In this document: positions 1-3,900 of the stretch, one piece after another
How the letters are laid out: each line of letters begins with the position of its first letter
Position numbering within the stretch: position 1 is the stretch's first letter
Assembly: GCA_017400135.1 (NCBI GenBank)
Contig: JAFPVJ010000004.1
Coordinates: 1-64,000, forward strand
Direction of reading: 5' to 3'
DNA from: Bacteroidales bacterium
Lineage (GTDB): Bacteria; Bacteroidota; Bacteroidia; Bacteroidales; UBA932
DNA: 64,000 nucleotides
The notes under the pieces: model-generated
Database searches by the model: none
What the model saw: the letters and a program-made list of their open reading frames with translations, nothing else
What the model was told of the DNA's origin: nothing
Made by a program: the position numbers and the translations under genes

Positions 1-189
1 AGCAATACGTTCGGGAACAGTTGCTACAGCAATACGTTCGGGAACTACTTCCAGAGCAACACGTTCAGGAACGACTGCTACAACAACACGTTCGGGAACG
101 ATTGTGGCGGCAACACATTCGGGAACAGTTGCTACAGCAATACGTTCGGGAACTACTTCCAGAACAATACGTTCGGGAACAACTTCCAG
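1..189 (+). repeat. 27-bp tandem repeat, about 7 units
   Basis: Seven imperfect 27-bp units, each containing a form of AACACGTTCGGGAAC, encode the 9-residue protein repeats. The array runs off the left edge, so copy number is a minimum. Units 1 and 5, and 2 and 6, are nearly identical, which suggests duplication of two-unit blocks. Confidence 0.85.
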
Positions 190-402
190 TATGGGACTGT
201 GTTTGAGGGAGTTACCTATGTCAATGTCCCTGGGTCCAATTCTCCCACAAAATACTGCACCATCCTCGCCGGTACCAGCGGAACGAATGGCAATAACAAG
301 CTGACAATCAGCTTTGTTGTAAACAAGAGTTATCCGCAGTTTGCCGGCAAGAATACCGCCGGAACGCTCAAGATCTGGAACCCCGCAGACCTGGCCGAAT
401 AG
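1..402 (+). CDS. Repeat protein with 9-residue NTFGN repeats, 3' end only
   Basis: The frame is open from base 1 to the TAG at 400-402, so only the C-terminal 133 residues are visible. The first about 63 residues are seven 9-residue units of the form [S/N]NTFGN[S/Y/D/N][C/F][Y/Q], which suggests a stacked beta-helix-like solenoid. A non-repetitive tail of about 70 residues follows and ends NPADLAE. No catalytic motif is visible. Cys, Asn and Phe recur at fixed phase, as expected for ladder positions. A strong hairpin follows the stop codon. Similar Asn-rich repeat proteins occur in gut Bacteroidota and phages, but I do not know a function for this one. The repeat reading is solid; the role is unknown. 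Confidence 0.75.
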   Translation, partial: SNTFGNSCYSNTFGNYFQSNTFRNDCYNNTFGNDCGGNTFGNSCYSNTFGNYFQNNTFGNNFQYGTVFEGVTYVNVPGSNSPTKYCTILAGTSGTNGNNKLTISFVVNKSYPQFAGKNTAGTLKIWNPADLAE

Positions 403-563: not shown

Positions 564-1733
564 ATGAATGAAAGACTCACTTGCAAAATCCGCTATCGTC
601 TGGTCTTGAACCGGAGCGGGAGGCTGAATGCCAGGGGCGAGGGCCTCGTCCAAATCGAATGTGAGCAGTATGGCCGGAAGATCTATTTCTCCACCCGAAC
701 CTATGTGCGCCCGGATCAATGGCACCGTGGGCTTGTCGTGGGCAATGAGCTCGCCGACGGCTTGAATTACTGCCTGTACAAACAGATCCAGGAAGTGGAG
801 AGGATAGAACTTGAATACATCAAAAGGGGCGTGTCCGTCACGCTGCCAATGATGAAAGAGGCAGTCCGATCCCATCTTTCGCCTGGGGCGAGACTTTCAG
901 AATTCGGTTCCGAGGTGGTCCAGCAGAGCGACCGGAAGAGCCTGACCAAGCTCAATTACAAGACGCTCCTGAATAACCTGGAAAAGTTCCGAAAAGGCAC
1001 ACTGGTAACAGATATCGACTATCAGTTTGTGGTCTCCTATGACCGGTGGTTGCGGGAAAGCGGTATCGCCCATAATACCCGGATCAGCAGGCTCCGGTTG
1101 CTGCGTGCCCTGTTGAACGAGGCGAAGAAAAGGGATATTATCCTTTCTAATCCGTTCGACCGGTTCAAGATCCAGGGAATGGTCTCAAAGAAGGGCTACG
1201 TCAATCCGTCGCAGCTGAGGAAACTGGAGAACCTTAAACTGAGCGGAAAGGAGGACATCGTCCGGGACGCTTTCCTTTTAGGATGTTATACAGGTCTTCG
1301 CTTTTCGGACATTACGACCCTACGCTCGGAGCACATCACTGGGGACGGGTGGATTCACAAAAAGATGGTTAAGACCGGCTTCATTGTGGATATACCCATC
1401 ATCCAGCTATTTGAAGGGAAAGCCGAGGCAATGATCCGGAAGTACAAAGGGGATATCGGACGCTTGACAAAGGAGATTGGGGACAATGCAAGTGTCAACA
1501 AAACGCTGAAACCCCTTCTCGAGAAGGTCGGTGCGGAGTCGAAAATCACCTTTCACTCCAGCCGCCATACATTCGCGACTCTCCTGACCCAACAGGGCGT
1601 AGATTTACCTACTATCCAAAAGCTGTTGGGCCACCAGAAACTCCAGACGACGCAGATCTATTCAGAAACAGACAAAGCGACTATTGCCAAGAACCTACAC
1701 ATCAAGAAAAAGCCCAGGAAGAACGCCGACTAA
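564..1733 (+). CDS. Tyrosine recombinase/integrase
   Basis: 389 residues, the usual size for Bacteroidota site-specific tyrosine recombinases. An N-terminal arm/SAM-like core-binding region (about 1-215) precedes the catalytic domain. Catalytic residues are visible: Arg246 in TGLRFSD, His331 and Arg334 in HSSRHTF, His357 in LLGHQK and the nucleophile Tyr366 in TQIYS. The tail is Lys-rich. It would cut and rejoin DNA through a 3'-phosphotyrosine intermediate. The start at 564 is the first of two close ATGs (564, 568) and the only one in this frame. The gene is flanked by copies of TTCCACCCATCTC. Whether it is an element integrase or a local invertase cannot be settled from sequence. No excisionase is seen. 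Confidence 0.9.
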   Translation: MNERLTCKIRYRLVLNRSGRLNARGEGLVQIECEQYGRKIYFSTRTYVRPDQWHRGLVVGNELADGLNYCLYKQIQEVERIELEYIKRGVSVTLPMMKEAVRSHLSPGARLSEFGSEVVQQSDRKSLTKLNYKTLLNNLEKFRKGTLVTDIDYQFVVSYDRWLRESGIAHNTRISRLRLLRALLNEAKKRDIILSNPFDRFKIQGMVSKKGYVNPSQLRKLENLKLSGKEDIVRDAFLLGCYTGLRFSDITTLRSEHITGDGWIHKKMVKTGFIVDIPIIQLFEGKAEAMIRKYKGDIGRLTKEIGDNASVNKTLKPLLEKVGAESKITFHSSRHTFATLLTQQGVDLPTIQKLLGHQKLQTTQIYSETDKATIAKNLHIKKKPRKNAD

Positions 1734-2038: not shown

Positions 2039-2674
2039 ATGAACAAATACCACGAAATATTAAACCATATCATACTGGATGGGAAGAGCCAGAAGAACAA
2101 GAAAGGCAACATCCGATACCTCCTTAACCAGCAGTTATCAATGACTCCCGGGGATCTCCTGGACATTTTCGAGGGGCACAACCTTGCCCGCAAGAAACTA
2201 AAGAATGAACTGGATCTGTTTACCCACGGAATCCGGGACGTGGAGAAATACAGGGAAGCGGGCATCTCCTGGTGGGACTATGTGGGCCCCATCCTCGTGA
2301 ATAGCTACCCGACCTATTTTGAGAAGCTGCCTCCCCTGGTCGCACGGATTAATCGAGAGAAGAGGAACAGCAAGAACTATGTGCTGTTTTTGGGCGCGAC
2401 TGATGCCGAAAGCAATCAGGCGCCATGCTTGAGCCTGATTCAGTTTCAGATTGATTGTGGAGAACTGGTCTTGACCGCTTACCAGCGAAGCTCCGACGCC
2501 AGTCTGGGGCTCCCTGCCGACATCTACCACCTGTACCTCATCTCCAGGCAGATTGACTTGCCCTTGAAATCAATTACTCTATTCCTGGGGAACGTGCACA
2601 TTTATGAGAATAACCTATCCAACACCGAACGTCTCTTGAACGGTGAGGATGTACGCTTTGAGCTAAACGTTTAA
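2039..2674 (+). CDS. Thymidylate-synthase-fold protein, possible dCMP hydroxymethylase-like enzyme
   Basis: 211 residues, shorter than ThyA (about 264). Recognisable TS landmarks in order: Glu57 in NELDLF (catalytic Glu position), Trp79/Asp80, Cys130 in APC (nucleophile position), Arg150 and Asp153 in YQRSSD, LGLPADIY in place of the family LGxPFNIA, and His187/Tyr189 in VHIYENN. The Asn that selects dUMP (Asn177 in E. coli ThyA) is Asp161 here. In T4 dCMP hydroxymethylase the same position is Asp and selects dCMP. The N-terminal phosphate-binding Arg region (DRTGTGT-like) and the paired Arg before the Cys are not conserved, so activity is uncertain. It follows a recombinase in an atypical-GC island, which fits a mobile or phage-derived nucleotide-modification gene. 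The family assignment is good; the substrate is inference. Confidence 0.7.
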   Translation: MNKYHEILNHIILDGKSQKNKKGNIRYLLNQQLSMTPGDLLDIFEGHNLARKKLKNELDLFTHGIRDVEKYREAGISWWDYVGPILVNSYPTYFEKLPPLVARINREKRNSKNYVLFLGATDAESNQAPCLSLIQFQIDCGELVLTAYQRSSDASLGLPADIYHLYLISRQIDLPLKSITLFLGNVHIYENNLSNTERLLNGEDVRFELNV

Positions 2675-2686
2675 GCCCGAGGGCGC

Positions 2687-2938
2687 TCAAATGTCATTCA
2701 AACGGCGGCTGGGCGCTTTTCGTTCGGCATACTGCAAGTCAATAGAGAACAGACAACGAGGCTGCGTAATGTAGACCCGTTGCTGGCTATATCGATTATA
2801 CCTCCAGTACGTGTATAGCGTTTCAGGCCCATCCTGCAATGTCCCGACAAAGTGGCACTTCTTCCCGAATAAGTAGAATACGGTCCCGGGCTGGAGTGCC
2901 TCAGGTGTAAAAGACTCAGCTGTGGCCTTCGTGCACAT
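2687..2938 (-). CDS. Small protein of unknown function
   Basis: 83 residues, convergent with the TS-like gene (12 bases between stops). I do not recognise a family. Composition looks protein-like: aromatic and basic patches around YTYWRYNRY and no low-complexity runs. No signal peptide or membrane segment. The only promoter-like signal is TACCTTTG at 2943-2950 on the same strand, which would place the transcript start within a few bases of the ATG and give a leaderless or nearly leaderless message. It could be an accessory island gene; it could also be spurious. Confidence 0.45.
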   Translation of the reverse strand: MCTKATAESFTPEALQPGTVFYLFGKKCHFVGTLQDGPETLYTYWRYNRYSQQRVYITQPRCLFSIDLQYAERKAPSRRLNDI

Positions 2939-2989: not shown

Positions 2990-3090
2990 GGGAGGAAAGC
3001 GAAATAACCACCTTTTTTGTGCACGTGTCGTTTTGACCGGTTAGCTCCTGGGGGATGCGCATTTCGATTTGACTTTAGACACGCTTCGTT

Positions 3091-3900
3091 TTGCCGATTA
3101 TATCTTTCTCCCTGAAGGAATGGGGCGTCGAGACTTTCTGGGTATCGTTCTTCTATGGCGTCTGTATCAACCTCCAGAACTATGGCATCGACCAGAGTTT
3201 CACGCAGCGCTACATCGCTGCGAAGGATGACAAGTCGGCGGCAAAATCGGCTTTTTCCGGAGCGATGATGTATATCCCGGGGACGTTCCTGTTCGTGATG
3301 GTCGGCTCGCTGCTGTGGATGTTCAGCGCCACGCATCCGGGCCTGATTCCCGCGGAGGTGAGTTCCCAGTCCGATGCCGTCTTCCCCTGGTACATCGTCA
3401 ACCGTCTGCCGCACGGCATCAGCGGCCTGCTGGTCGCGGCGATCATTGCAGCGGCGATGAGCACGGTGGCTGCGACGCTCAATTCCGGATCGACGGTCTT
3501 GCTGGAGGATTATTTCAAACGCTTTTTCCCGGGGAAGGCTTCTGAGGGGCGCAACATCCGTTTCCTGCGCTCGATGACGGTTCTCCTGACGGTCGCTTCC
3601 ATCTGCGTGGCGGTGGCCGTGATGAACGTGAAGAGCGCCTTGACCGCATGGTGGGGGATGCAGAGCGTCCTGTCGGGTGGCATGCTGGGTCTCTTCCTGC
3701 TGGGAGCCTATTCGAGGCGCACCACCTCGACGCAGGCCATCATCGCGACCGTGCTGGGCCTGCTGGTCGTGGTGTACATTACCTTCGGTCAGAAGATCCT
3801 GCCCCTGCCGGGCTGGATCCACCTCAACCTTTCCATCGCCCTCGGTACCCTGACCCTTTTCTTTGTCGGCTGGCTCCTGGCCACGCTGAAACGGCGGTAG
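3091..3900 (+). pseudogene. 5'-truncated sodium:solute symporter (SSF)
   Basis: About 265 residues match the C-terminal half of the SSF/SSS transporter family: NLQNYGIDQSFTQRY, then helices including IIAAAMSTVAATLNSGSTVLLEDY and later membrane spans, ending in ATLKRR. A complete relative of 495 residues lies at 47495-48982. Upstream frames are closed (TAG at 3076) and homology begins abruptly near 3103, so the N-terminal half, with several membrane helices and much of the transport path, is gone. The only start in frame is a TTG at 3091 with no promoter. The break coincides with the end of the accessory island, so truncation by insertion or deletion is the likely cause. The gene is otherwise open and probably decayed recently. 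Confidence 0.8.

What the first reader, a model, noticed from the sequence alone, without database searches (positions are those of the whole stretch)
2039..2674. Thymidylate-synthase-like protein with the dUMP-selecting Asn replaced by Asp, next to a recombinase
Cys130, Arg150, Asp153, His187 and Tyr189 align with catalytic/binding residues of ThyA, but the position of E. coli Asn177 is Asp161. It is established that T4 dCMP hydroxymethylase has Asp at this position, and that this Asn/Asp choice steers dUMP against dCMP. A short TS-fold enzyme with this change in a mobile-looking island suggests a modified-cytosine or nucleotide-based conflict system. The loss of the N-terminal phosphate-binding Arg motif means it may instead be a divergent or inactive form.
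Basis: partly seen in the sequence, partly recalled or inferred. Interest (0 to 1): 0.7.

Follow-up and report, generated by a model that had tools for sequence, protein, structure and literature searches.

The report
Gut phage thymidylate-synthase-like enzyme with Asp177
A phage that jumps around the chromosomes of gut bacteria carries, at its right end and in its relatives often beside a DNA methylase gene, a strongly conserved relative of thymidylate synthase whose active site looks built for cytosine instead of uracil, which suggests that a common kind of human gut phage may chemically mark its DNA.

Summary
Window 2039-2674 encodes a 211-residue thymidylate-synthase-superfamily protein, and Asp161 stands at the E. 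coli Asn177 site: 11 residues after the catalytic Arg, as in T4 gp42, without a gap. In 193 distinct family proteins Cys130, Arg150, Asp153, Asp161, His187 and Tyr189 are invariant, and dN/dS is low where it could be estimated, so it is not decaying. The 'island' is the right end of a Mu-like prophage of at least 35.8 kb, related to hankyphage, inserted in a sodium/solute symporter gene with a 5-bp target duplication. The family (69-94% identity in the search tables) is spread through phages of Bacteroidota; the next phage records listed are ordinary TS at about 28%. In 93 of 150 non-redundant loci a D12-type DNA methylase gene is the neighbour, in either order, usually within 100 nt. [quoted passage not shown] unlike it, it lacks the water-activating Asp (Gln here) and both second-subunit phosphate arginines (Lys-Asn here). 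Best reading: an active one-carbon transferase for a cytosine nucleotide that serves phage DNA modification. Substrate, product and purpose are inferred. Structure prediction could not be run. New variant of a known kind.

The parts
2039..2674 (+). Thymidylate-synthase-superfamily gene, 211 aa; Asp161 at the E. coli Asn177 site; no C-terminal tail
1..402 (+). 3' end of a repeat-rich phage tail-region protein (9-residue NTFGN-type repeats, 27-bp units); its likely 5' part is at the end of own contig C7 (62432-63373)
   Evidence: a homologue in one piece (467 aa) in L029; 'tail-region' is my reading from position
564..1733 (+). Tyrosine recombinase (389 aa) carried by the phage
   Evidence: Pfam Phage_integrase 2.8e-20 and Phage_int_SAM_5 4.7e-17; same position in L029 and L118
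2687..2938 (-). Small antisense ORF (83 aa) of unknown function, no Pfam match at 0.01
   Evidence: uncertain gene
3028..3102 (.). Right terminus of the prophage with two AAACGA repeats (3028-3033 and 3086-3091, on the minus strand), like those at both ends of hankyphage p00; phage DNA ends at 3102
   Evidence: homology with L029, L118 and L119 stops at 3103, 3102 and 3102
3103..3107 (.). Right copy of the 5-bp target duplication TCTTT (left copy at own contig C7:30669-30673)
3108..3900 (+). 3' part of the host gene interrupted by the prophage, read by me as a sodium/solute symporter (5' part at C7:30000-30673)
   Evidence: empty site joined in a script gives one 488-aa open frame; family name from the sequence by eye, no family search run

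Best explanation
It is an active, tail-less member of the thymidylate synthase superfamily, made by a Mu-like temperate phage, that uses a folate one-carbon unit at C5 of a cytosine nucleotide (dCMP most likely, CMP possible) instead of dUMP. The phage uses the product, in many relatives together with an adjacent DNA methylase, to change the bases of its DNA and so escape restriction; the gene sits near the phage right end, the place where Mu carries its own anti-restriction gene mom (recalled). Shown: superfamily, invariant catalytic set with Asp at 177, purifying selection, position in the phage, operon-like pairing with the methylase in relatives. Inferred: cytosine substrate, methyl or hydroxymethyl product, phosphorylation by host kinases and incorporation into DNA, anti-restriction purpose.
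For: Asp at 177 is invariant (193 of 193); Asn-to-Asp there can switch TS from dUMP to dCMP, and Asp179 is essential in T4 dCMP hydroxymethylase (PMC8670742 and PMC6400193, passages read). Equivalents of the catalytic Cys, Glu58, Arg166, Ser167, Asp169, His207 and Tyr209 are all kept. As in T4 gp42 the C-terminal tail is absent, Trp83 is absent (Val/Cys or gap) and Lys is usual at the Arg21 site. A D12-type DNA methylase gene lies beside it in 93 of 150 non-redundant loci (55 of the 79 with more than 1.2 kb on both sides), same strand, 88 of 93 within 100 nt or overlapping, 50 MT-TS and 43 TS-MT; the Pfam D12 match was tested on two representatives and the p00 protein. At least 29 changes of arrangement on a quick tree (117 rows with a known state). 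In one phage a different DNA methylase (N6_N4_Mtase) is just before the gene (L234). The gene is near the phage end: 55 of 105 viral loci hold at most 1 kb of sequence after it.
Against: The hydroxymethylase signature of PMC6400193 is not met: three residues before the Cys is Gln127 (150 of 150) instead of Asp/Glu, and no Ser-x-Tyr is present (SY and TY dipeptides instead). Arg126'/Arg127', which hold the phosphate in TS and T4 gp42, are Lys/Asn. In hankyphage p00 no dCTPase, dNMP kinase or glycosyltransferase appears among the families shown (25 of 100 PHROG families and 25 of 39 Pfam families for 39 proteins), so a modified dCTP would have to compete with normal dCTP. 57 of 150 loci have no methylase of this cluster nearby (some of them cut by a contig end), and the window's own prophage shows none in C7 or beside the TS gene. 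No modification of any such phage DNA is known to me.
Confidence: 0.45

Rival explanations
1. Same chemistry but another substrate: a ribonucleotide (CMP), a free nucleoside, or a pyrimidine already in nucleic acid; the product is not a DNA precursor.
For: Lys112 replaces Arg126' as in the CMP-preferring enzymes MilA and BcmA (PMC5175136, passages read). Lys112-Asn113 is invariant in 150 of 150, whereas 14 of the 15 reference rows have Arg-Arg there (Microbacterium phage Nebulous: Thr-Arg), so binding of a 5'-phosphate probably differs.
Against: Ser151 is kept at the Ser167 site (Ala in MilA), and MilA A176S gains on dCMP and loses on CMP; no biosynthetic partner genes were recognised nearby.
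Confidence: 0.2
2. An ordinary auxiliary thymidylate synthase that boosts dTMP for phage replication, as annotated.
For: Annotated so in hankyphage records. Three of 13 genus genomes that carry it show no other TS gene, while 23 of 387 genomes without it show none (Fisher p 0.045), and the own genome shows no ThyX.
Against: Asp at 177; His147, Trp83, both second-subunit arginines and the C-terminal tail of TS are changed or absent; none of 8 NCBIfam TS models reaches its cut-off. Ten of the 13 carriers have a further TS match. folA, seen beside thyA in 2 of 8 relative loci printed (L086, L101), is also not found in two of the three genomes and lies at a contig start in the third, so the absence may be an assembly gap.
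Confidence: 0.12
3. A prophage-borne exclusion or host-takeover factor that acts by draining or poisoning a pyrimidine pool when a rival phage infects or at induction.
For: Cargo position near the phage end, and presence in phages of different make-up (a gene cluster that I read as tyrosine integrase, without a family search, in 5 of 150 loci).
Against: Frequent pairing with a DNA methylase gene instead of a recognisable sensor or toxin partner.
Confidence: 0.12
4. A catalytically dead or purely binding/regulatory TS-fold protein.
For: Several ligand-binding residues of TS are replaced; TS itself can bind RNA (recalled).
Against: Complete invariance of the nucleophile and catalytic residues, and dN/dS of 0.02-0.15 in four pairs.
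Confidence: 0.06

Closest known systems
Hankyphage (Bacteroides phage p00, BK010646; Mu-like transposable phage with a diversity-generating retroelement)
   Same: TS gene 76.9% identical near the right end; Mu-like transposase (own copy 39% identical); AAACGA repeats at both ends
   Different: The window's phage has a tyrosine recombinase before the TS gene where p00 has the retroelement, and no adenine methylase after it. 'Thymidylate' does not occur in the main text of three papers that discuss hankyphage (PMC6199706, PMC12135933, PMC12629997; supplements not searched)
T4 dCMP hydroxymethylase (gp42)
   Same: Asp at 177, no C-terminal tail, Trp83 lost, Lys at the Arg21 site, catalytic Cys/Glu/Arg/Asp/His/Tyr
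   Different: Gln instead of Asp145, no Ser-x-Tyr, Lys/Asn instead of Arg123'/Arg124'; separate clade in the tree, though one joint clade is not rejected (p-AU 0.215)
MilA / BcmA CMP hydroxymethylases
   Same: Asp at 177 and Lys at the Arg126' site (residues from PMC5175136, passages)
   Different: Ser kept at 167; no extra C-terminal domain as in MilA; no antibiotic genes recognised nearby
Bacterial ThyA
   Same: Same superfamily, about 22-28% identity to full-length host ThyA of the genus
   Different: 211 against 264 aa; Asn177, His147, Leu143, Trp83, Arg126/127 and the C-terminal tail are changed or absent
Mu mom (recalled)
   Same: Anti-restriction modification gene at the right end of a transposable phage
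   Different: Unrelated protein and chemistry; an analogy of position only

Membership tests
Thymidylate synthase superfamily (Pfam PF00303) | Profile match over the curated cut-off | tested here: met
   63.9 bits against 24.3
Thymidylate synthase superfamily (Pfam PF00303) | Catalytic Cys, Glu58, Arg166, Asp169, His207, Tyr209 equivalents | tested here: met
   invariant in 150 of 150 non-redundant members
dTMP-forming ThyA | NCBIfam equivalog cut-off | tested here: not met
   best of 8 models 49.7 bits against a cut-off of 327
dTMP-forming ThyA | Asn177 | tested here: not met
   Asp in 193 of 193
dTMP-forming ThyA | C-terminal tail that closes over folate | tested here: not met
   protein ends about 40 residues short
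dTMP-forming ThyA | Four phosphate arginines (21, 126', 127', 166) | tested here: not met
   Lys21, Lys112, Asn113, Arg150
T4-type dCMP hydroxymethylase | Asp at 177 (Asp179 of T4) | tested here: met
   same spacing from the catalytic Arg without a gap (sequences)
T4-type dCMP hydroxymethylase | No C-terminal tail; Trp83 replaced | tested here: met
T4-type dCMP hydroxymethylase | Asp/Glu three residues before the Cys (Asp145) | tested here: not met
   Gln127 in 150 of 150
T4-type dCMP hydroxymethylase | Ser-x-Tyr (Ser94, Tyr96) | tested here: not met
   NSYPTY in this region; the local alignment is uncertain
T4-type dCMP hydroxymethylase | Common clade with gp42 | tested here: inconclusive
   not in the best tree, not rejected (p-AU 0.215)
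T4-type dCMP hydroxymethylase | Makes 5-hydroxymethyl-dCMP | not testable with these tools
   needs an enzyme assay
MilA-type CMP hydroxymethylase | Lys at 126', Ala at 167, Asp at 177 | tested here: not met
   Lys112 and Asp161 yes, but Ser151 at 167
Mu-like transposable (hankyphage-type) prophage | MuA-type transposase | tested here: met
   39% identity to the p00 protein over 18-646 of 679
Mu-like transposable (hankyphage-type) prophage | 5-bp target duplication at an insertion inside a host gene | tested here: met
   TCTTT on both sides, empty site open
Mu-like transposable (hankyphage-type) prophage | Random choice of target | not tested
   one insertion only
Mu-like transposable (hankyphage-type) prophage | Diversity-generating retroelement | tested here: inconclusive
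   none noticed in the ORF list of C7 or in the window end; no dedicated search, and the contig gap is not covered

The most novel reading that the evidence does not exclude
A branch of the thymidylate synthase fold that came to cytosine on its own, separate from T4 gp42 and MilA, with a different water or proton relay (Gln127, Lys112, Asn113), whose product is combined with the work of the partner D12-type methylase to give a base mark not yet described, carried by a very common phage group of the human gut.
Probability: 0.15. Interest if true: 0.85.

Novelty: new variant of a known kind. Interest (0 to 1): 0.5.

Why it matters
Hankyphage-type phages are described as globally widespread in human gut Bacteroides (PMC6199706, PMC12135933), and the passages I saw say nothing of modified DNA. 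A conserved cytosine-type TS often paired with a DNA methylase predicts a modification, and one deletion strain plus mass spectrometry would decide it. It may also bear on how these phages cross between species with different restriction systems, and it offers a natural enzyme family in which to ask which residues set base choice and methyl against hydroxymethyl outcome in the TS fold.

Tried and rejected
Loss of host thyA as a sign that the phage gene makes dTMP: suggestive at first (3 of 13 against 23 of 387, Fisher p 0.045). Followed with folA and an epimerase-like neighbour gene: folA is not found in G000 and G032 either and lies at a contig start in G317; the neighbour gene in G000 is not followed by thyA, and G032 has only distant copies (39 and 38%). 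Not decidable from incomplete genomes; dropped as evidence.

Intermediate homologues: in the phage collection 21 records are listed at 75.9-77.8% and the next listed place is 27.7% (23 records in the 60-80% band, 213 below 60%; 23 and 1339 at the laxer limit, where some short partial matches reach 34%). In plasmid records 3 are at 60-80% and the next listed is 25.6%. Among 395 genomes of the phylum only the own genome and G605 pass 1e-17. The viral and genome contig scans keep only the best 80, so they cannot show a gap.

Tree: the family is one clade (100/100) on a very long stem; its place inside the superfamily is not resolved.

Accessory nucleotide enzymes in hankyphage p00: none in the families displayed, but only the first 25 of 100 and of 39 families were shown, and 39 of the record's 48 annotated features (two of which are repeats) were scanned; the long tail genes and a few short ORFs were left out.

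Literature: searches (no paper), 61, 83, 84, 85, 110 and 111; no title or abstract start in these listings treats this gene. PMC7644841 (a B. fragilis phage with 'thymidylate synthase' 5 times) was seen only as a listing, and whether the TS of that phage or of phiB124-14 (PMC3338817, passages) belongs here was not tested. Passages, not whole texts, were read of PMC6199706, PMC12135933, PMC8670742, PMC6400193, PMC5175136, PMC3338817 and PMC12629997. The library lacks most subscription journals and preprints.

Superposition on ThyA, gp42 and MilA: not done, see below.

Full report
What is there. The ORF at 2039-2674 (+) encodes 211 residues. It matches the thymidylate synthase family in Pfam (1.7e-17), PHROGs (1.5e-26) and, with a profile of 46 relatives, E. 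coli ThyA in the PDB (4e-15); none of the 8 NCBIfam TS models matched reaches its cut-off. Alignment with host ThyA of the genus and with T4 gp42 gives these correspondences (E. coli numbering as used in the papers, or recalled): Glu58 = E57, Trp80 = W79, Cys146 = C130, Arg166 = R150, Ser167 = S151, Asp169 = D153, His207 = H187, Tyr209 = Y189, all kept; Asn177 = D161; His147 = L131; Leu143 = Q127; Trp83 = V82 (Cys in 64 of 70 proteins) or a gap; Arg126' = K112; Arg127' = N113; Arg21 = K21; C-terminal tail absent. R150 to D161 is 11 residues, as in E. coli and T4 gp42, so the Asp claim does not hang on a gap.

Is it more than chance or decay? 249 loci with a strong match were collected, repeats included, and genes were extracted from 248; 246 are 211-213 aa, one is cut by a contig end (L229) and one gave no frame at the expected start (L029, frameshifted). 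Among 193 distinct proteins of at least 200 aa, the window's included, the residues C130, R150, D153, D161, H187, Y189, E57, K112, N113, Q127 and S132 are each invariant. Seeds of some scans contained such residues, but the 12 proteins from whole-genome searches and the 70 distinct proteins, whose seeds did not contain D161, agree. Of 10 pairs tested, dN/dS could be computed for four: 0.039, 0.033, 0.021 and 0.146; synonymous sites were saturated in the other six.

Where it sits. The first 3 kb of the window have about 50% G+C against about 60% in most of the rest. Own contig C7 carries a MuA-like transposase (39% to hankyphage p00). The left flank of that prophage is the first part of a gene that I read as a sodium/solute symporter; the last part of the gene is at window 3108-3900. 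A 5-bp repeat TCTTT stands at C7:30669-30673 and window 3103-3107, and the joined empty site is a single open frame of 488 aa. The prophage is therefore at least 32,700 + 3,102 bp, broken between contigs inside a repeat-rich gene. AAACGA repeats lie at both ends, as in p00, and homology to L029, L118 and L119 ends at window 3102-3103.

Distribution. 13 of 400 genomes of the genus carry the gene. In the phylum sample the own genome and one other, G605, of 395 carry it (71% identity). The genome collection scan found 260 relatives and kept 80; 79 titles name Bacteroidia (by my knowledge of the names, nearly all Bacteroidales) and one a short Fibrobacter MAG contig. Viral collection scans gave 226 and 214 relatives, 80 kept each, 75-94% to the window protein and 69-87% to that of G605. 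In the phage records the listed family members end at 75.9% and the next listed place is 27.7%.

Neighbours. In 150 loci with TS under 97% identical, a gene of one methylase cluster (PF02086, 1e-9 and 3e-20 for two representatives) is adjacent on the same strand in 93: 50 before and 43 after the TS gene, 88 of the 93 within 100 nt or overlapping. Restricted to the 79 loci with more than 1.2 kb on both sides it is 55. On a quick tree the three states (before, after, none; 117 rows) need at least 29 changes; errors in that tree inflate the count. A small HTH-like gene (weak Mor and HTH_29 matches under their cut-offs) is present in 52 and a reverse-transcriptase cluster in 46 of the 150. The window's own prophage shows no such methylase in C7 or beside the TS gene.

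How it most likely works. Asp at 177 is the known switch from uracil to cytosine, and positions 177 and 147 were the two that best separated TS genes of modified phage contigs from others (PMC8670742). Lack of the tail and of Trp83 is shared with T4 dCMP hydroxymethylase, whose site is open to ordered water (PMC6400193). But the two signatures given there for hydroxymethylation (Asp/Glu three before Cys; Ser-x-Tyr) are not met, so I do not file it as a member of that family; it may make a methyl or a hydroxymethyl product. Lys at 126' recalls MilA, while Ser at 167 recalls enzymes that take deoxynucleotides (PMC5175136), so dCMP is favoured and CMP remains open. The methylase pairing and the phage-end position point to DNA marking against restriction. 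Substrate, product and purpose are inferred.

What I could not do. The tree does not settle whether the family is kin of gp42 (p-AU 0.215) or of ThyA (p-AU 0.42).

Verdict. Observation confirmed; interpretation partly supported; a new variant of a known kind, in a widespread phage group that can be induced in laboratory Bacteroides strains.

Noticed in passing
window 564-1733 with repeats at 449-466, 1774-1791 and about 1862-1872: The phage tyrosine recombinase is flanked by an 18-nt direct repeat (AATARTTCCACCCATCTC) with an inverted partial copy, next to a repeat-rich gene; it may switch or shuffle that gene, in place of the retroelement of p00. No inverted copy of the whole segment was seen in L029 or L118.
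   Followed up: partly
window 1-211 and own contig C7 end (63373): 27-bp tandem units (NTFGN repeats) in a tail-region protein; the assembly breaks here, which may mean length variation.
   Followed up: partly
own genome G000, relatives G032 and G317: No TS gene besides the phage one was found in three of 13 genomes that carry it; folA is not found in two of them and lies at a contig start in the third. Possibly assembly gaps, not shown.
   Followed up: partly
L289:95-1012 (Microbacterium phage Albedo): Another phage TS with Asp at 177 but with the C-terminal tail and Met at 147: a possible dCMP methylase of a different branch.
   Followed up: no
L234:6706-7986: In one phage the gene just before the TS is an N6_N4_Mtase DNA methylase, of another family than the usual neighbour.
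   Followed up: partly
L118: A 3-kb contig titled Fibrobacter sp. MAG holds the same phage end with 92% TS identity; mis-binning or a wider host range.
   Followed up: no
window 2687-2938 (-): Small antisense ORF of 83 aa between the TS gene and the phage end, without a Pfam match; a terminator-like hairpin on the minus strand at 2989-2971 lies before it, not after.
   Followed up: partly
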